From an uncultured Brachyspira sp. (GTDB lineage Bacteria; Spirochaetota; Brachyspiria; Brachyspirales; Brachyspiraceae), in the NCBI RefSeq assembly GCF_944393015.1, contig NZ_CALXYQ010000008.1:1-64000 (forward strand): a DNA stretch of 64,000 nucleotides. Reading direction: 5' to 3'. Position 1 is the stretch's first letter. Each line of letters opens with the position of its first letter. Of this stretch, positions 13,668 through 22,501 are shown one piece after another. The translations under genes and the position numbers were made by a program. The notes under the pieces are model-generated. The model saw nothing but the letters and a program-made list of their open reading frames with translations. It was not told the DNA's origin and searched no databases.

Positions 13668-15596
13668 GTGGCAGCAACTATTATAGACAATAATATAAGG
13701 CAGGATATCCTTGACTATTCTGCAATATTGGAAACAACTGTAAAGGATATTAACTCTTTCCTTGAAGAAGTTGGAAGAGTATATAGCTTTATAGGTGAAA
13801 AATTTCCTATGATTGAACAGGAAATGAAAAATGAAAACGAAAAAGCTAATAAGCTGCTTTCATATTTTACCAATAAAGAAAAAGGAGAAAAAAACTTCTC
13901 TAATGATTTAGATGAAAACCAAGAAGATTTTTTTAGATCCTTTGATAGAATGCAAAGTTTTATATCACAAGACAATGAACTTTCTGATTCCTTAGTAGAA
14001 GACGTTGGCAGAACAAGTAATATTATGGATTCCATAGAGCAAATTAGGATGCTTGCTGACCAAATTAAAGTTTATTCATTGAATGCCATTATCATATCTT
14101 CTAAATATGGTGCCGGCGGTAAAGCTTTTGGAGAAATATCCAAAAATATAATCAAAATGTCTGAAACATCAAATGAACAGGCAGATCAAATGAATAGAAT
14201 CGGTAAGGAATTATTTGTAAGGTTCGAGTCATTTAAAACTGAAATATTAAAAACAAATGAATTGCAAAGACAGAATTTTACAATTATGAGAGAGCAGCTC
14301 GATAAAGAGCATAATAACATGGTTAATTCCTTTGCAGTATTCTCTAATATAATATCAGATATAATATCAAGAGTTGATAATACTTATGATTTTATATTTG
14401 AAGTAATGATGGTTCTTCCTCGTGAGGATATAGTAAGACAGCAGACAGAACATATAATAGAGTCTATGAATTCGATAGTTTATGAAAATAGAAATTTCAT
14501 TGAATTTTATGGAAAAGAAGTAGAAACTATGGATGCTGCCGATCTTGAAAAAGAAGAAAATCAAAGTTTGGAGCATAAACTTCTTGACTTACTTACTTTT
14601 GATGATGTTGTTTTAACTTTAATAATAGAAAACTTTAAATCAATACATGAGGAAATTGACCTTACAAACTCAGATATTTATAAAAGTTTGAAAGGTTTAA
14701 AAGATGCTTTAACAGATATTACATTAGATAGAACTACTATAGTTGAATATATGATTGGAGGCGAAAGCGGTAAATCAGAGTTTCCTTTCACAGTTTCAGA
14801 GTCTTTGTTTAATGAGTATATGGGTTTCATTAAACTTTATTTGGAAAACTTCAAATTGTTTTTAACTAATAAATATAGAATATCCGACAGCAATATAGCT
14901 ATCATAGACTCAATAGAAGAATTGGAAAGTATGTTCTTAGAAACAAAAAATATTGCTAAAACATTTAACTCTATTAACTTTTTAGCTAAAATAGAACTTG
15001 AAAAGAATAGTGATATATTTAATAATTCACAAACTTTCTCTATAGAAAGTGTTGAATCAATAGCTACTAACATTACAGAAACAGTAGATGGATGTTTAGA
15101 GCAGTTCCATAATATTAAATCAGCTATTTTCAGTTCAATTAATAAATTTAAATCTAATATTAATCAGCAGTCAAGCGAGCATTCTTTTATAGAATCTATG
15201 ACAGACAGTGTAAGTAAACGTTTAGATGAATCAAAATATATCATTAATAATAACATAAAAAGATTAGATAGTTATGCTGATGAATTATTTGGACTTATAG
15301 ACAAAACCCTAATAGATTTAAGTTCATTAAGTACATTGCTTACAAAGATTAATGAAATAATAGAAATCTTTAACAGTATGAGAAATGTTATAAGAGATAA
15401 GAAAAATGAATATTATAATTTATTAGGTATAGAAAATTGGAAAATAGAAAGTGATAAATATTTGGATATAGTTAATTCTTATACAATAAAGAAAGAAAGA
15501 GCTATTGCTAATAGTATTTTATCTGGAGAAGATGCGCCTAATGTCGATATAAGTATAGATGTAGGTGCTGACAGCGGCGATTTTACTATGTTTTAA
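13668..15596 (+). CDS. Soluble, degenerate MCP-like chemotaxis protein
   Basis: A 642-residue protein, almost all helical, without membrane segments. Residues 120-175 resemble the hairpin tip of a chemoreceptor (IRMLADQIKVYSLNAIIISS followed by GGKAFGEISKNIIKMSE), but the tip Glu and Arg that contact CheA and CheW in classical receptors are changed, so it is a degenerate receptor-like scaffold. The rest is long coiled coil with no sensor domain. As first gene of the che operon it probably acts in the signalling array or in adaptation (inference). The start is GTG with GGGA upstream; the nearby ATG at 13648 is out of frame. Confidence 0.7.
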   Translation: MAATIIDNNIRQDILDYSAILETTVKDINSFLEEVGRVYSFIGEKFPMIEQEMKNENEKANKLLSYFTNKEKGEKNFSNDLDENQEDFFRSFDRMQSFISQDNELSDSLVEDVGRTSNIMDSIEQIRMLADQIKVYSLNAIIISSKYGAGGKAFGEISKNIIKMSETSNEQADQMNRIGKELFVRFESFKTEILKTNELQRQNFTIMREQLDKEHNNMVNSFAVFSNIISDIISRVDNTYDFIFEVMMVLPREDIVRQQTEHIIESMNSIVYENRNFIEFYGKEVETMDAADLEKEENQSLEHKLLDLLTFDDVVLTLIIENFKSIHEEIDLTNSDIYKSLKGLKDALTDITLDRTTIVEYMIGGESGKSEFPFTVSESLFNEYMGFIKLYLENFKLFLTNKYRISDSNIAIIDSIEELESMFLETKNIAKTFNSINFLAKIELEKNSDIFNNSQTFSIESVESIATNITETVDGCLEQFHNIKSAIFSSINKFKSNINQQSSEHSFIESMTDSVSKRLDESKYIINNNIKRLDSYADELFGLIDKTLIDLSSLSTLLTKINEIIEIFNSMRNVIRDKKNEYYNLLGIENWKIESDKYLDIVNSYTIKKERAIANSILSGEDAPNVDISIDVGADSGDFTMF

Positions 15597-15620: not shown

Positions 15621-15884
15621 ATGTCAGTTATAGAGATAAATGATAATCTTAATATAAGAACTATGAGTAAATATTTTAAGAATGTCATAAAAAGTGCTAA
15701 TTATAACGAAGATATGACTGTAAAATTTAATTGTGAGGGTGATGCCCATGTAGATTTAGCAGGACTTCAAATACTGTATGCTATGAAAAAAGAACTTGCT
15801 AAAAATCAAAAAAACCTTATAGTAGAAGGTATGGATAATTTGTTTGTAGAATATTTAAATATAATTAATGATAAAAATAATTAA
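15621..15884 (+). CDS. STAS-domain protein in chemotaxis operon
   Basis: An 87-residue single STAS domain. The core VDLAGLQILYAMKKEL matches the helix-start region of anti-anti-sigma factors, but the phosphorylatable Ser/Thr in D-x-S-G is missing (D-L-A-G), so switching by phosphorylation at that site is unlikely. Small STAS proteins of this kind occur beside cheY and cheA in several phyla. A role tuning CheA or CheY output is plausible but unproven here. A strong GGAGG lies before the ATG. It is followed 19 bases later by cheY. Confidence 0.8.
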   Translation: MSVIEINDNLNIRTMSKYFKNVIKSANYNEDMTVKFNCEGDAHVDLAGLQILYAMKKELAKNQKNLIVEGMDNLFVEYLNIINDKNN

Positions 15885-15903: not shown

Positions 15904-16272
15904 ATGGCTAAAACAATACTAATTGTAGACGATTCTAATACAGCTAGAGCATCTGTTGAATATACTTTGAAGAAAGGCAGCTATACTGTAGTGTCTGCAG
16001 ATGATGGTACTACAGGATTAGAGGTTCTTGGTAAAACACCAAATGTTGATATGATAATAACAGACCTTAACATGCCAAAAATGGACGGTATAGAGTTTAT
16101 TAAGCATGTAAGAAAAGTAGATCAGCATAAATATACCCCTATTCTAATGCTTACAACAGAATCTCAAGATGAGAAAAAAATGGAGGGTAAAGCTGCAGGT
16201 GCTAGTGGTTGGCTAGTAAAGCCATTTAACCCGACTCAGCTTTTAGATGTAGTAAAACGTTTTTTAAATTGA
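15904..16272 (+). CDS. cheY: Chemotaxis response regulator CheY
   Basis: A 122-residue single receiver domain. The acidic pair D9-D10, phospho-acceptor D54 (in IITDLNMPKMDG), T84 and K106 (LVKPF) are all present, so it should be phosphorylated by CheA and bind the flagellar switch. Residue 103 is Trp where many CheY proteins have Tyr or Phe. It lies between the STAS gene and cheA. No CheC, CheX or CheZ phosphatase gene is in the cluster. Confidence 0.95.
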   Translation: MAKTILIVDDSNTARASVEYTLKKGSYTVVSADDGTTGLEVLGKTPNVDMIITDLNMPKMDGIEFIKHVRKVDQHKYTPILMLTTESQDEKKMEGKAAGASGWLVKPFNPTQLLDVVKRFLN

Positions 16273-16326: not shown

Positions 16327-18504
16327 ATGTTTGATAGTGATGAATTTATTTCGATATTCCTAAGTGAAGCCAATGAAATTGTAGAAGGTCTTGAAAACGA
16401 TCTTGTTTTGTTGGAAGATAATAAAAGTGATGAAGATCTTTTAAATAAAATATTTAGAAGTGCTCACACTCTTAAATCTTCAGCAGGTACAGTTGGCTTT
16501 ACAACTATGAGTGAGTTAAACCACGTTGCTGAAAACTTATTAGAAAAAGTTAGAAGCGGTAAGTTGGATGTTACTCCTCAAATGATTACAGTATTATTAG
16601 AGTTCTTAGATACTGTAAAATTAATGCTGCAAAATATTGTAGATGGTAAAAGTGAAACTGAAGGTGTTACTAATATAGATTCACTAAAAGCTAAAATAAA
16701 AGCTATAGCTGACGGTAATGATGTAAGTACTGCAGCAGCTGCACCAAAAGCATCTCCTGAACCCAAAAAAGAAGAGCCTAAGAAAGAAGAGGCTAAAGCA
16801 ACAGAAACTAAACCTGAAGAGAAAAAGGAAGATACAAAAGCTGAATCATCTTCTGCTTCAGGAGGAGAAAATTCATTCCATATCGAAATGGGATTTAAAG
16901 CTACTATTTTTGATAATGGTATAGACCCTCTTATGTTCTTGAACGACCTTAGAGCTATAGGTACTATTAGCAACTTGAAAATAGAATGTAATAGCTTACC
17001 TACTATCTTAAATCTTGAAGATCCTTATGTTTGTTATACTCAGTTCTCTTTAGATTTTGAAACTAATGCTCCTGAAGAACAAGTTCAGAATATTTTCTTA
17101 TTTGTAATAGATGATAATGATATTAATATTATAAATACTAAAGCTGAAATAAAAGATGATGAGGAAGCAAATAAAGCTCCTGAAGCTAAAGAAGAACAGC
17201 CAGCAAAAGAAGAAGCTAAAGAAGAAACTGCTTCTAAACCTGAAGAAAAGCCTGCAGAAACAGCTGCAGCTGCTAGTAAACCTGCTGCTGCTCCTAAAAC
17301 TGGCACAAAAGTTCAGGCGCCTTCAACAGTAAGGGTTGATACAAGAAAATTAGACAGCTTAATGAACTTAATCGGAGAGCTTGTTATAGCACAGTCAAGA
17401 ATAATGCAGCTTACTCAAAGTTTGGATATAGATAATGGACTTAAAGAAGCTGTAAGTTCAATGGATAGAACTTCCAGACAAATACAAGAAGAAGTTATGA
17501 ATATCCGAATGATGCCTATTGGTCCTATATTTACTCAGTTCCATAGATATGTTAGGGACTTGAATTTAGAATTAAACAAAGAAGTAAAACTAGTTCTTAA
17601 AGGTGAAACTACAGAAATAGATAAAAATATGTTAGAGCAGTTATCTGACCCTCTTAAACATATTATAAGAAACTCTATGGACCATGGTATAGAGAAAACA
17701 AAAGAAGAAAGAATAGCAAGAGGTAAGCCTGAATATGGTACAATAACAATGTCTGCTGCTCACCAAGAAGGACATGTTGTTATAGAAGTATCAGATGATG
17801 GTAATGGATTGAATAAAGAAAAAATCTTTAATAAAGCCGTTGAAAAAGGACTCCTTTCAAAAGATGGCAAATATTCTGATATAGAAATATACAGAACTAT
17901 TTTCTCTCCTGGTCTTTCTACTGCTGAAAAAATAACTGACATATCAGGAAGAGGTGTTGGTATGGATGTTGTTAGAGCTAACGTAGAAAAGATGAAAGGT
18001 AAAATAGAAATTAAATCTGCTGAAGGTCAAGGCAGTACATTTATAATTAAATTACCTTTAACATTGGCTATTATTGAAGGTATTACTTTTGCTTTAGGTA
18101 AGCAAATATACATAATGCCTTTGATTTCAATTATAGAGCAAATAAAAGTAAAAAATGAACAGGTAAAACCTTTTGAAGGCAAAGGTGAAATGATAAAAAT
18201 CAGAGATGAGTATTTACCTTTGATTAGATTGCATAAAGTATTTGAAATAGATACGCAAGTTGAAAATATAGACGATGGTATAGTTGTAGTTGTTGAAGCT
18301 GGATATAGAAAATGTGCTATATTTGTTGATGAGCTTTTGGATCAGCAGCAAGTAGTTATTAAATCTTTAGATTCAGCATTCAGTAAACATGCAGGAATAG
18401 CCGGAGGTACTATACTTGGAGACGGAAGAATAGCCCTTATTATAGATATACAAGGACTAGTTAATATGTCTTTACAAGGAAAAATCAATAACGGCGTTAA
18501 ATAA
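16327..18504 (+). CDS. cheA: Chemotaxis histidine kinase CheA
   Basis: A 725-residue kinase with full domain order. The Hpt domain (1-105) has phospho-His H47 in SAHTLKSSAG. An Ala/Lys/Glu-rich linker (about 138-178) leads to a P2-like domain (180-270). A second Ala/Glu/Pro-rich linker (about 277-330) follows, then dimerisation helices (TVRVDTRKLDSLMNLIGELV), the ATPase domain with HIIRNSMDHGIE, DDGNGLNKEKI and GRGVGMDVV, and a C-terminal CheW-like domain (about 590-725). The linkers are repetitive and could vary in length between strains. It phosphorylates CheY and CheB in receptor arrays. Confidence 0.96.
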   Translation: MFDSDEFISIFLSEANEIVEGLENDLVLLEDNKSDEDLLNKIFRSAHTLKSSAGTVGFTTMSELNHVAENLLEKVRSGKLDVTPQMITVLLEFLDTVKLMLQNIVDGKSETEGVTNIDSLKAKIKAIADGNDVSTAAAAPKASPEPKKEEPKKEEAKATETKPEEKKEDTKAESSSASGGENSFHIEMGFKATIFDNGIDPLMFLNDLRAIGTISNLKIECNSLPTILNLEDPYVCYTQFSLDFETNAPEEQVQNIFLFVIDDNDINIINTKAEIKDDEEANKAPEAKEEQPAKEEAKEETASKPEEKPAETAAAASKPAAAPKTGTKVQAPSTVRVDTRKLDSLMNLIGELVIAQSRIMQLTQSLDIDNGLKEAVSSMDRTSRQIQEEVMNIRMMPIGPIFTQFHRYVRDLNLELNKEVKLVLKGETTEIDKNMLEQLSDPLKHIIRNSMDHGIEKTKEERIARGKPEYGTITMSAAHQEGHVVIEVSDDGNGLNKEKIFNKAVEKGLLSKDGKYSDIEIYRTIFSPGLSTAEKITDISGRGVGMDVVRANVEKMKGKIEIKSAEGQGSTFIIKLPLTLAIIEGITFALGKQIYIMPLISIIEQIKVKNEQVKPFEGKGEMIKIRDEYLPLIRLHKVFEIDTQVENIDDGIVVVVEAGYRKCAIFVDELLDQQQVVIKSLDSAFSKHAGIAGGTILGDGRIALIIDIQGLVNMSLQGKINNGVK

Positions 18505-18515
18505 AGGATTGTAAT

Positions 18516-19046
18516 ATGTTAGATAATCAAAAAATAAATGCAGCTAATATACCTCAGGTTGGAGGTACATCTTTAGAACATGATGAAAACATTTCTATTG
18601 AACCTAGTCAGCAATTTTTAGTGTTTAAAATCGATAATGAAGAATATGCTCTTGATGTATTGAGTATTGAAGGTATTGTAGGTGTAACTAATATAACTCC
18701 TGTTCCTGGAAGCCCTAAATTTATGAGAGGTCTTATGAATTTAAGAGGCAATATTCTTCATATCGTTGATATAAGAATAAGATTCGGTTTAGATAGAAGA
18801 GATGATCATTCTATTGAAGATGATGTTATTATAGTTATATCTACTACTAATAGAAAATTTGGTATATTGGCAGATATGGTAAGTGATGTTATTACAGTTT
18901 ATGAAAGCCAGATGACAGAAACTCCTATTGATAATATGAGAGGACTTCAAATTTCTAATGTTATTAGATTGGAAAATAAGATTATTATGGTTCTTCCTAT
19001 AGAAGAAATCATAAAATCTAATGAAACTACCAATCAAACAGTATAA
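18516..19046 (+). CDS. cheW: Chemotaxis coupling protein CheW
   Basis: A 176-residue CheW: about 35 extra N-terminal residues, then the paired beta-barrel core (FLVFKIDNEEYALDVLSIEG, VPGSPKFMRGLMNLRGNILH, ILADMVSDVITVYESQM). It links chemoreceptors to CheA at the inner face of the membrane. It starts 11 bases after cheA, with AAGGATTG as ribosome site, and is followed 18 bases later by cheR. Confidence 0.95.
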   Translation: MLDNQKINAANIPQVGGTSLEHDENISIEPSQQFLVFKIDNEEYALDVLSIEGIVGVTNITPVPGSPKFMRGLMNLRGNILHIVDIRIRFGLDRRDDHSIEDDVIIVISTTNRKFGILADMVSDVITVYESQMTETPIDNMRGLQISNVIRLENKIIMVLPIEEIIKSNETTNQTV

Positions 19047-19064: not shown

Positions 19065-19916
19065 ATGGAAGATATGAATGAGCATATGCCGGCTCTGAGT
19101 GATGCTGAGTTTAATGAATTAGTTAAAATTATTTATGACAAAACTAGAATACAAATGACTAGCCATAAAAGGGCTCTAGTAACCTCTAGATTAAGTAAGA
19201 GATTAAGGGCCTTAAAAATGGACTCTTTTAGGGAGTATATAGATTTTGTTAAGAATGCTAAAGATGAAGAATTAACTAATTTTGTTAATGCTGTTACCAC
19301 AAACAAAACTGACTTTTTCAGGGAAAATAAGCATTTTGAGTATATGAAGAGCACATTTCTTCCAGATTGGGAAAAGAATTTTAAAGCCGGCAAAGTAAAA
19401 AATCTTAGAATATGGTCTGCAGCATGTTCAACTGGAGAAGAACCCTACACTATTCAAATGACTTTGCATGAATATTTTGGTGCTAATTATGATAAATATG
19501 ATATAAAGGTTTTAGCCAGCGATATAGATACAAATGTATTGGCACATGGCAGAGCTGGTATTTATAAAGAAGAATCTGTTGAACCAATACAAGAAAATAT
19601 ATTAAGAAAATATTTTTTGAAAGGTACAGGTGATAAAGAAGGATTATACAAAGTTAAAGATATTTTGAAAAAGAATCTATTTTTTAGACAATTAAATTTC
19701 AAAGATGAAGATTTTGATATTCATACACAATTCGATTTGATATTTTGCAGGAATGTTATTATTTATTTTGATAAAGAATTCCAAAAGGAATTATTTAATA
19801 AATTTCATAGATATTTGAAAGAAGACAGTTTAGTATTTATAGGACATTCAGAAACATTGTTTGGAGTGTCAGATAAATTTAAATATGTAGCAAGCAATAT
19901 TTATAAAAAGATTTAA
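19065..19916 (+). CDS. cheR: Chemoreceptor methyltransferase CheR
   Basis: A 283-residue protein-glutamate O-methyltransferase that adds methyl groups from S-adenosylmethionine to receptor glutamates. An N-terminal helical domain (1-85) precedes the SAM-binding domain with LRIWSAACSTGEEPYTI, then VLASDIDTNVLAHGR and FDLIFCRNVIIYFD. The length is typical and no C-terminal TPR is present. With cheB and cheD downstream it supplies the adaptation arm of the pathway. Confidence 0.95.
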   Translation: MEDMNEHMPALSDAEFNELVKIIYDKTRIQMTSHKRALVTSRLSKRLRALKMDSFREYIDFVKNAKDEELTNFVNAVTTNKTDFFRENKHFEYMKSTFLPDWEKNFKAGKVKNLRIWSAACSTGEEPYTIQMTLHEYFGANYDKYDIKVLASDIDTNVLAHGRAGIYKEESVEPIQENILRKYFLKGTGDKEGLYKVKDILKKNLFFRQLNFKDEDFDIHTQFDLIFCRNVIIYFDKEFQKELFNKFHRYLKEDSLVFIGHSETLFGVSDKFKYVASNIYKKI

Positions 19917-19932
19917 CTAGGGGTGTATAATA

Positions 19933-20526
19933 ATGATTGATTTTCCAGCAGCGGCCAATAGCAATTTTAAGAGAATCACAATATATATAGGTGGTTATTA
20001 TGCTTCAAAAGAACCTGCTGTAATAAAAACAGTTCTAGGCAGTTGTATATCTGTATGCCTGTTTGAGAATAAATTAAAATTCGGAGGTATGAATCACTTT
20101 ATGCTTCCTGAAATGAGAGAATGGGAAAATCCGGCTGAAGATTATAATAATACTAGATACGGTGTTTTTGCAATGGAGGTTCTTATAAACGAAATCATTA
20201 AATTAGGCGGTAAAAAAGAAAACCTCACAGCCAAAATATTCGGAGGCGGACATGTACTCTCAGGTATGACTAGCAATATTCTTCAAGTACCTGATAAGAA
20301 CATACAATTTGCTAAAAAATTTTTGGCAGATGAAAAAATACCTATAGTAAGTGAGGATATAGGAGGTTCTTGGCCTAGAAAAGTATTCTTCTTCAATACC
20401 GAAAATAGAGTGCTTATGAAAAAACTAGAAGGTAAAACTAAAGAGTTCTCAGCTGAACAGGAAATTAAATATTCTAAAAATTTACAGCATAAACTTGAAG
20501 AAAAATCAGACATTACTTTGTTTTAA
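19933..20526 (+). CDS. cheD: Chemoreceptor glutamine deamidase CheD
   Basis: A 197-residue CheD, longer than the usual 160 because of a charged C-terminal tail (about 165-197). The catalytic Cys (C38 in LGSCISVCLF) and His (H55 in MNHFMLP) are visible. It deamidates receptor glutamines to glutamates. In Bacillus it also pairs with the CheY phosphatase CheC, which is not in this cluster. It is followed 24 bases later by cheB. Confidence 0.93.
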   Translation: MIDFPAAANSNFKRITIYIGGYYASKEPAVIKTVLGSCISVCLFENKLKFGGMNHFMLPEMREWENPAEDYNNTRYGVFAMEVLINEIIKLGGKKENLTAKIFGGGHVLSGMTSNILQVPDKNIQFAKKFLADEKIPIVSEDIGGSWPRKVFFFNTENRVLMKKLEGKTKEFSAEQEIKYSKNLQHKLEEKSDITLF

Positions 20527-20550: not shown

Positions 20551-21684
20551 ATGGCTACAAAAATTAAAGTATTAGCTATTGATGATAGCGCATTAATAAG
20601 ACAGTTGCTTACTAAAATTGTAAACTCAGACCCTGCATTAGAAATGGTAGGAACTGCAGCAAATCCAATTTTAGCTGAAAATAAGGTCAAAAATCTTAAA
20701 CCTGACATTATTACGTTAGATATTGAAATGCCGGAAATGGATGGTATTACATATCTCAAAAAGCTTATGCTTAACAACCCTATTCCTGTAATAATGTTTA
20801 GTTCTCTTTTGGATAAACATAGAGAATTAGCTTTAGATGCTTTAAATATTGGAGCTTTTGATTATGTTATAAAACCTTCTGCAAATGTTAGAGATGGTGT
20901 AGAAGAATTAGCTACAGATTTAGTTGAAAAAATTAAAAATGCTTATGCAAACAGAGCTAAGTTTTATAGAAAACATGGTGTTACAGTTCCAACAGAACCT
21001 GTTGCAGCTACAGAAAGAAGTTCTATTAGCTTAGAAGCACCAAAAACAGCTGGATTCAAAGTTTATCAAAAAAATACTGCAGATATCATACTTCCTCTTA
21101 CTCCTTCAAGAGAAACTCCTATGGATAAAATCATTCTTATAGGTTCTTCAACAGGAGGTACAGAGGCTTTAATAGAATGTCTTAAAAATGTTACTCCTTC
21201 TGCTCCTCCTATAGTTATTGCTCAGCATATGCCTGAACACTTTACTACTTCATTTGCTAAAAGATTAAATAGTATTCTTAAAATAGATGTATTTGAATCT
21301 GAAGACGGTATGAGTGTTGGAAGAGGACAAGCTGTATTAGCAAGAGGTGCTAAGCATACTATGATTAAAGTTAGAGGCGGTAAATATTACATAGAAGTAA
21401 GAGATGGTGAGCCTGTTACAAGACATAAACCTTCTGTAGATGTACTTTTCAGAAGCGGTGCCGTTTATGCTAAAAACAAAGCTATCGGAATAATACTTAC
21501 AGGTATGGGTGATGACGGTGCTAATGGTATGAAAGAAATGAAAGATGCAGGTGCTTACAATATCGCTCAAAATGAAGAAACTTGTACAGTTTTCGGAATG
21601 CCTAGAGAAGCAATCGCAAGAGGCGGTGTTGATGAGGTTTTACCATTAGATAAAATACTTGCTGCTGCTCTAAAAAGAGTATAA
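20551..21684 (+). CDS. cheB: Chemotaxis methylesterase/deamidase CheB
   Basis: A 377-residue response regulator-enzyme. The N-terminal receiver has phospho-acceptor D57 (TLDIEMPEMDG). A linker of about 60 residues leads to the methylesterase domain with the catalytic Ser S200 (IGSSTGGTEA), the AQHMPEHF His motif and GMGDDGANG for the Asp. It removes methyl groups from receptors and is activated by CheA. One base separates its stop from the next ATG, which suggests translational coupling. Confidence 0.95.
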   Translation: MATKIKVLAIDDSALIRQLLTKIVNSDPALEMVGTAANPILAENKVKNLKPDIITLDIEMPEMDGITYLKKLMLNNPIPVIMFSSLLDKHRELALDALNIGAFDYVIKPSANVRDGVEELATDLVEKIKNAYANRAKFYRKHGVTVPTEPVAATERSSISLEAPKTAGFKVYQKNTADIILPLTPSRETPMDKIILIGSSTGGTEALIECLKNVTPSAPPIVIAQHMPEHFTTSFAKRLNSILKIDVFESEDGMSVGRGQAVLARGAKHTMIKVRGGKYYIEVRDGEPVTRHKPSVDVLFRSGAVYAKNKAIGIILTGMGDDGANGMKEMKDAGAYNIAQNEETCTVFGMPREAIARGGVDEVLPLDKILAAALKRV

Positions 21685-21685
21685 A

Positions 21686-22501
21686 ATGGATAATAATATA
21701 GATTTATATGAATATATAAATAGATGGGTAAGCGGATTTAAAGCTTACCCATATTATAAAATAGAAAAAAAATTGGATTTCATATCCAAATTAATATCTT
21801 CTCATAAGCAGTTCAATAATATTTCTATTATTCCTACTGGTTCAAAAAGAAATAGAACAGATATAAACTATATGGAATATTTAAATGTATTTTTAATATT
21901 AGATGATACAACTAATACAGCTGATACTAGAAAATTTAAATCTTCTATTTTAGAATTAATTAAAAATAATGATTTATATTCAAATAAGGTTAATGTTACA
22001 TCGTCATCTTTAATTTTAGAATACGAAAGTGAAAAAATTGTATTAATACCTTCATTCAAAAATTTAGATAATAATGTAGAGGGTGCTTTAGTTACAAATA
22101 ATAATGAAAAAAATGAAATTTTCTATCCTAAACTAGATAATAGGAATTTTGATAAAAAAGAACATGATTGTGGGGCTAATTTTATCAATTTAATAAAATT
22201 ATTTAAGAATTTATTCTTGGCTTTTTCTGCCGAAATTAAATACATTAATGAATTAACTCCTGCTATAACAGAAGCACTTATTTGGAATTTACCAAATGAA
22301 TATTTTCAATTCAAAGATTATACTGATGCTATATTAAAAGCTCTTGACTATATTTATCAAAGAATAGCTAGTGATGATTATATGTCTCTTTCTGAAATCA
22401 ATGATATAAAAGTACTATTTTCATCTAGAAATAATATGGACAGGAAAGAATTATTAAAAGCATTGTACAAATTAAAACAATTTATACATGAAAATATATA
22501 A
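21686..22501 (+). CDS. Degenerate nucleotidyltransferase (CD-NTase-like fold) at end of che operon
   Basis: A 271-residue protein I identify from pattern only. Residues 48-72 (TGSKRNRT, then FLILDD) align with the GS-x-GT...D-x-D...hhhh start of CD-NTase/OAS-type nucleotidyltransferases. IVLIPSF (about 118) aligns with the xDhVPxF strand. Residues 165-215 (INLIKLFKNLF, then ITEALIWNLPNEYF and YTDAILKALDYIY) match the helical part of that family (hxhLKxL...hxSFLIExLVWNVPNxxF). All three catalytic aspartates are replaced (residues 65-67 are Y-L-N; the third is hydrophobic), so it is probably not an enzyme. It starts one base after cheB and ends the operon. The function is unknown; a scaffold or nucleotide-sensing role in chemotaxis is a guess. 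Confidence 0.6.
   Translation: MDNNIDLYEYINRWVSGFKAYPYYKIEKKLDFISKLISSHKQFNNISIIPTGSKRNRTDINYMEYLNVFLILDDTTNTADTRKFKSSILELIKNNDLYSNKVNVTSSSLILEYESEKIVLIPSFKNLDNNVEGALVTNNNEKNEIFYPKLDNRNFDKKEHDCGANFINLIKLFKNLFLAFSAEIKYINELTPAITEALIWNLPNEYFQFKDYTDAILKALDYIYQRIASDDYMSLSEINDIKVLFSSRNNMDRKELLKALYKLKQFIHENI

What the first reader, a model, noticed from the sequence alone, without database searches (positions are those of the whole stretch)
21686..22501. Catalytically dead CD-NTase-like protein in the chemotaxis operon
The last gene of the che operon, one base after cheB, has the GS-x(4)-T start, a xIVLIPSF strand and the IKLFKN...ITEALIWNLPNEYF helices of the CD-NTase/OAS nucleotidyltransferase group, while all three metal-binding Asps are replaced. 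A pseudo-nucleotidyltransferase tied to CheB would be a new kind of chemotaxis component, perhaps a nucleotide sensor or a scaffold.
Basis: inference. Interest (0 to 1): 0.75.

Follow-up and report, generated by a model that had tools for sequence, protein, structure and literature searches.

The report
Dead CdnE-like protein in chemotaxis operon
Spirochaetes of the genus Brachyspira carry, as the last gene of their main chemotaxis operon, a protein with the fold of an anti-phage signalling enzyme (CdnE) whose catalytic residues have all been replaced, which suggests that a defence enzyme was recruited as a non-catalytic part of the chemotaxis machinery.

Summary
The gene at 21686-22501 starts one base after the cheB stop and encodes a 271-aa protein. 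Profile searches (PADLOC cyclase, E = 1.8e-17) and structure prediction (pLDDT 85, pTM 0.82; best PDB matches LpCdnE/EfCdnE, TM up to 0.87) show a clade-E CD-NTase fold. All three metal-binding Asps are replaced (Y65, N67, V119) in every one of 23 intact Brachyspira orthologues; 13 canonical relatives aligned with them keep all three. All 24 gene copies in the genus lie directly after cheB. A divergent relative sits at the same place in a second Brachyspiraceae genus; it has lost two of the three Asps but kept base-recognition residues. The gene is under purifying selection (dN/dS about 0.08-0.26). Most base-contact residues are gone in Brachyspira. Conservation is highest in the lid helix and C-terminal loop that frame the old cleft. 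I read it as a CBASS-type cyclase recruited, and catalytically silenced, as an accessory of the CheR/CheD/CheB adaptation module, most likely a protein-binding regulator. The chemotaxis role rests on gene linkage alone. A nucleotide sensor is less likely but not excluded.

The parts
21686..22501 (+). pseudo-CdnE gene (271 aa), last gene of the che operon
21839..21859 (+). GSKRNRT, remnant of the GS motif (residues 52-58); G52, K54, R55, N56, T58 invariant, S53 is Ala in 12 of 23 orthologues
21869..21886 (+). YMEYLN (residues 62-67), where canonical CdnE has the D-x-D; D65->Y (23/23), D67->N (22/23, Ser once)
22040..22042 (+). codon 119, position of the third catalytic Asp (EfCdnE D137); V, M, L, A or I in orthologues
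22124..22162 (+). YPKLDNRNFDKKE (residues 147-159), lid helix; contains one of the two most conserved stretches
22205..22207 (+). K174, equivalent of LpCdnE K201 / EfCdnE K202 (donor gamma-phosphate side); invariant
22391..22435 (+). SEINDIKVLFSSRNN (residues 236-250), C-terminal lid-3 loop region; the (R/Q)xW motif is replaced by N-N-[M/I/L]
20551..21684 (+). cheB (receiver + methylesterase)
19933..20526 (+). cheD
19065..19916 (+). cheR
18516..19046 (+). cheW
16327..18504 (+). cheA
15904..16272 (+). CheY-like receiver protein
15621..15884 (+). STAS-like small protein (weak hit, below Pfam cut-off)
13668..15596 (+). MCP-signal-like protein at the head of the operon (weak hit, below Pfam cut-off)

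Best explanation
The protein is a pseudoenzyme derived from a clade-E CD-NTase (CdnE, the cyclic-dinucleotide synthase of CBASS anti-phage systems). Shown: predicted fold and sequence relationship, loss of all three metal-binding Asps in every intact orthologue, fixed position directly after cheB in the main che operon, a homologue at the same place in a second genus of the family, and purifying selection. Inferred: a CBASS-type cyclase was acquired before the two genera split, came to lie at the end of the che operon, and lost catalysis. Inferred mechanism: made together with CheR, CheD and CheB, it no longer makes a nucleotide signal. It uses the rebuilt rim of the old active-site cleft (lid helix about 147-162 and C-terminal loop about 231-250) to bind a partner of the adaptation module, most likely CheB or CheD, and so tunes receptor methylation or deamidation.
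For: Fold: an AF2 model from the 17 Brachyspira orthologues alone (pLDDT 75, pTM 0.50) already matches EmCdnE and EfCdnE in the PDB at 6e-12 and 1.4e-11; a model with canonical relatives added (pLDDT 85, pTM 0.82) matches LpCdnE and EfCdnE at 6e-14 to 2e-13 with TM 0.82-0.87. Sequence. Triad lost in 23/23 intact orthologues, kept in 13/13 canonical relatives. Linkage: 24/24 copies directly after cheB, while the downstream gene differs between subgroups. Second genus: same operon order with a homologue 10 bases after cheB, matching EfCdnE at 5.3e-18; trees join it to Brachyspira at 98/98 and 96/99. Selection: dN/dS 0.08-0.26. Mean entropy per ten residues is 0.19-0.28 at 151-160 and 231-250 against 0.49-1.55 elsewhere.
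Against: No interaction, expression or phenotype data. Three of 26 genomes of the genus have cheB but no such gene after it, and the related genus g2 lacks it too, so chemotaxis does not need it. One genome has a frameshift. It evolves faster than CheB, whose dN/dS is 0.004-0.08. The partner (CheB or CheD) is a guess from gene order. Long branches could produce the join of the two genera (warning). The second model's alignment contains canonical CdnE proteins and so leans towards that fold, though the first does not.
Confidence: 0.55

Rival explanations
1. Nucleotide sensor: it cannot catalyse but still binds a nucleotide or cyclic dinucleotide in the old cleft and reports it to the chemotaxis adaptation enzymes.
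For: G52, N56, T58, N154, K158 and the phosphate-side Lys K174 are kept. Conservation peaks around the cleft rim. The homologue in the second genus keeps D67, the lid-1 Asn and the QxW motif that select pyrimidines in CdnE, though it has lost D65 and D137 (residue roles from PMC10442399).
Against: In Brachyspira the Q51, R61, lid-1 N174, S221, F222, (R/Q)xW and metal-binding Asp positions are all replaced, many of them variably; pocket positions as a set are not more conserved than the rest (8 of 19 invariant, Fisher p = 0.45).
Confidence: 0.25
2. A decaying relic of a CBASS system that hitch-hikes at the end of the operon and has no function.
For: Catalytic residues lost; absent from 3 of 26 genomes; frameshifted in G009; dN higher than that of cheB in every pair compared.
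Against: dN/dS 0.08-0.26 across 14 pairs, 91 of 271 positions invariant in 23 orthologues, one fixed gene position across the genus and in a second genus.
Confidence: 0.12
3. Still an anti-phage protein, an inactive regulator or decoy of a cyclase encoded elsewhere.
For: Best profile matches are CBASS cyclases and an anti-phage nucleotidyltransferase.
Against: No effector gene next to it; it sits in a che operon. No other full-length clade-E cyclase found in Brachyspira genomes with two family models. The one other spirochaete match (G108) keeps the Asps and lies beside a type I restriction-modification gene.
Confidence: 0.05
4. Still catalytically active through other residues or without metal.
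For: The fold and several phosphate-side residues are kept.
Against: No acidic pair remains in the aligned strands; E64 is next to the D65 position but by strand alternation should face the other way, and there is no acid at the third position.
Confidence: 0.03

Closest known systems
EfCdnE / LpCdnE / ClCdnE, cyclic di-pyrimidine synthases of clade E (PDB 7x4c, 7x4f, 7x4a; PMC10442399)
   Same: Overall predicted fold (TM 0.82-0.87), GS-loop region, lid helix with conserved Y-P and N...K pattern, phosphate-side Lys, C-terminal loop.
   Different: All three catalytic Asps, the lid-1 Asn and (R/Q)xW are lost; about 20-25 residues are missing after the strand that carried the D-x-D; it sits in a che operon instead of beside a CBASS effector.
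DncV of Vibrio cholerae / E. coli ECOR31 (PMC6401482)
   Same: A CD-NTase with a reported effect on chemotaxis or motility.
   Different: DncV makes cGAMP, and its catalytic mutants had no effect on motility in ECOR31; that it is not encoded in a che operon is my own knowledge, not tested here.
CBASS-like cyclase of spirochaete G108 (L094)
   Same: Matches the same cyclase family model in the same phylum.
   Different: Keeps SDID and a third Asp and lies beside a type I restriction-modification gene.

Membership tests
CD-NTase, clade E (CdnE) | Nucleotidyltransferase fold with C-terminal helical domain, best matches in clade E | tested here: met
   predicted structure and profiles
CD-NTase, clade E (CdnE) | Three metal-binding acidic residues (D-x-D plus a third Asp) | tested here: not met
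   0 of 23 intact orthologues
CD-NTase, clade E (CdnE) | GS motif | tested here: inconclusive
   G52 in 23/23, Ser in 11/23 and Ala in 12/23
CD-NTase, clade E (CdnE) | Lid-1 Asn for the acceptor base and (R/Q)xW for the donor pyrimidine (cyclic di-pyrimidine subgroup) | tested here: not met
   F/Y/D146 and N-N-[M/I/L] in Brachyspira; both kept in the second genus
CBASS system | Adjacent effector gene (Cap) | tested here: not met
   Neighbours are cheB and, in most species, glutamine synthetase type III
CBASS system | Synthesis of a cyclic oligonucleotide | not testable with these tools
   needs purified protein
Chemotaxis operon component | Conserved position in a che operon across species | tested here: met
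   24/24 copies after cheB; same in a second genus
Chemotaxis operon component | Physical or functional interaction with Che proteins | not testable with these tools
   needs two-hybrid, pull-down or deletion

The most novel reading that the evidence does not exclude
A CBASS cyclase was turned into a non-catalytic ligand sensor that feeds a nucleotide or cyclic-nucleotide signal into receptor adaptation, linking anti-phage signalling chemistry to chemotaxis.
Probability: 0.22. Interest if true: 0.85.

Novelty: new variant of a known kind. Interest (0 to 1): 0.62.

Why it matters
Che operons have a well-known parts list. A nearly genus-wide extra gene that is a disarmed immune cyclase would be a new chemotaxis accessory and a case of a CD-NTase working without making a signal. 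The second genus shows what looks like an intermediate stage (two Asps lost, base-recognition residues kept), so the order of loss can be studied from sequence. It also warns that annotating the gene as an anti-phage cyclase by profile match would be wrong about catalysis.

Tried and rejected
Pfam found nothing above noise, either for the single protein or across 17 orthologues. A scan of genome contigs with the orthologue profile gave only Brachyspira. Searches of 393 spirochaete genomes with the orthologue profile, with the second-genus protein and with a PADLOC cyclase model found no further cheB-linked case. Plasmids gave canonical clade-E cyclases and phage records gave nothing with the second-genus protein; the window's protein found only weak plasmid matches. 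Promoter and terminator scans did not differ from shuffled sequence and say nothing about the transcript. No paper in the held library names both CD-NTase and Brachyspira, and none holds the guessed locus tags. The idea that the triad might be kept elsewhere was checked on the alignment and rejected. Testing whether pocket positions as a set are unusually conserved gave no signal (p = 0.45).

Full report
The gene. ORF 21686-22501 (+) encodes 271 residues and follows cheB with one base between stop and start. Upstream, all on the + strand and closely spaced, are an MCP-signal-like protein, a STAS-like small protein, a CheY-like receiver, CheA, CheW, CheR, CheD and CheB. Downstream lies a type III glutamine synthetase. 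The window is from a Brachyspira-like genome: the named contigs that hold orthologues (52-93% identity) are all Brachyspira, and cheB is up to 99% identical across the genus set.

What it is. Pfam is silent, but NCBIfam gives weak hits to an anti-phage nucleotidyltransferase and a CBASS cyclase in 17 and 16 of 17 orthologues, and PADLOC gives cyclase PDLC00801 at 1.8e-17. A profile of the orthologues finds LpCdnE at 1.8e-13 and EfCdnE at 2.7e-10 among PDB chains. A model predicted from Brachyspira sequences alone (pLDDT 75, pTM 0.50) has CdnE structures as its best PDB matches, from 6e-12, TM about 0.65-0.71. With six canonical relatives and the second-genus protein added, pLDDT rises to 85 and pTM to 0.82, and the best PDB matches are LpCdnE and EfCdnE, TM 0.82-0.87. 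The second alignment leans towards the CdnE fold by its content; the first does not.

Catalytic residues. EfCdnE residue roles are taken from PMC10442399 and mapped by alignment. D65, D67 and D137 correspond to Y65 (23/23), N67 (22/23, Ser once) and V/M/L/A/I119. Six plasmid proteins, six proteins from viral contigs and EfCdnE, aligned together, all keep the three Asps. Also replaced are Q51, R61, S64, lid-1 N174 (F/Y/D), S221, F222 and the (R/Q)xW motif (N-N-M/I/L). Kept are G52, N56, T58, N154, K158 and K174. Ser of the GS motif is Ala in 12 of 23.

Conservation. Entropy is lowest at 151-160 and 231-250 (0.19-0.28 per position on average), which align with the lid helix and the C-terminal loop that frame the nucleotide cleft in CdnE; 91 of 271 positions are invariant. 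As a set, base- and phosphate-contact positions are not more conserved than the rest (p = 0.45). So the rim of the cleft is constrained, but not in the way a CdnE nucleotide pocket would be. Pairwise dN/dS (Nei-Gojobori) is 0.08-0.26 for this gene and 0.004-0.08 for cheB: a maintained protein, less constrained than CheB.

Linkage and distribution. 23 of 26 genomes of the genus have the gene; 24 copies in all, every one directly after cheB. In the subgroup that includes B. pilosicoli the window's downstream gene, glutamine synthetase, is not found next to it, so the link is to che. Three genomes have cheB without the gene. In genus g2 of the same family it is absent. In genus g3 (G146) the same operon order ends with a homologue that starts 10 bases after cheB and runs off the contig; a matching C-terminal piece starts another contig. 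That the two pieces are one gene is inferred. This protein matches EfCdnE at 5.3e-18, has D65->P and D137->N but keeps D67, the lid-1 Asn and QxW. Trees join it with Brachyspira at 98/98 and 96/99, with a warning about long branches in the first. On the cheB tree, presence and absence need two changes. In 393 spirochaete genomes the only match to the cyclase model outside this family is a canonical-looking protein next to a type I restriction-modification gene.

Mechanism. Shown: predicted fold, homology, triad loss, linkage, selection. Inferred: acquisition of a CBASS-type cyclase, loss of catalysis before or soon after capture, and a role as a partner of the adaptation enzymes. Binding of a protein through the cleft rim is my first choice; a nucleotide sensor is second. 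DncV, a catalytically intact CD-NTase, is reported to affect chemotaxis in V. cholerae and, through its activity, motility in E. coli ECOR31 (PMC6401482); this is a precedent for a connection but not for this mechanism. The che genes of B. hyodysenteriae have been listed as BHWA1_00489 to 00493 (PMC2650404); by inference the present gene would follow cheB there. CheB is among the detected proteins in Brachyspira proteomes (PMC4955376); whether this protein was detected could not be checked.

Verdict. The chemotaxis function is plausible and untested.

Noticed in passing
L025:1501-1640 (G009) against window 21764-21772: In G009 a run of 7 A replaces the window's 8 A at codons 27-29, which frameshifts the gene; a sequencing error, a real loss or a slippery phase-variable tract cannot be told apart.
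   Followed up: partly
L007 and L024 (G021): G021 has two different copies (88% and 67% identity to the window's); the genome is given as 7% contaminated, so the second copy probably comes from another species.
   Followed up: partly
window 13668-15596; L091:2676-4574: A GTG-start MCP-signal-like protein heads the che operon, and a similar-looking protein heads it in the second genus as well; the Pfam hit is below cut-off.
   Followed up: partly
L083:1054-3295 (Halomarina plasmid): Two annotated nucleotidyltransferase genes in tandem (437 and 302 aa), followed by a hypothetical protein.
   Followed up: no
L028:99-951 (G003): Where the gene is missing after cheB, two overlapping ORFs in different frames look like one broken unrelated gene.
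   Followed up: no
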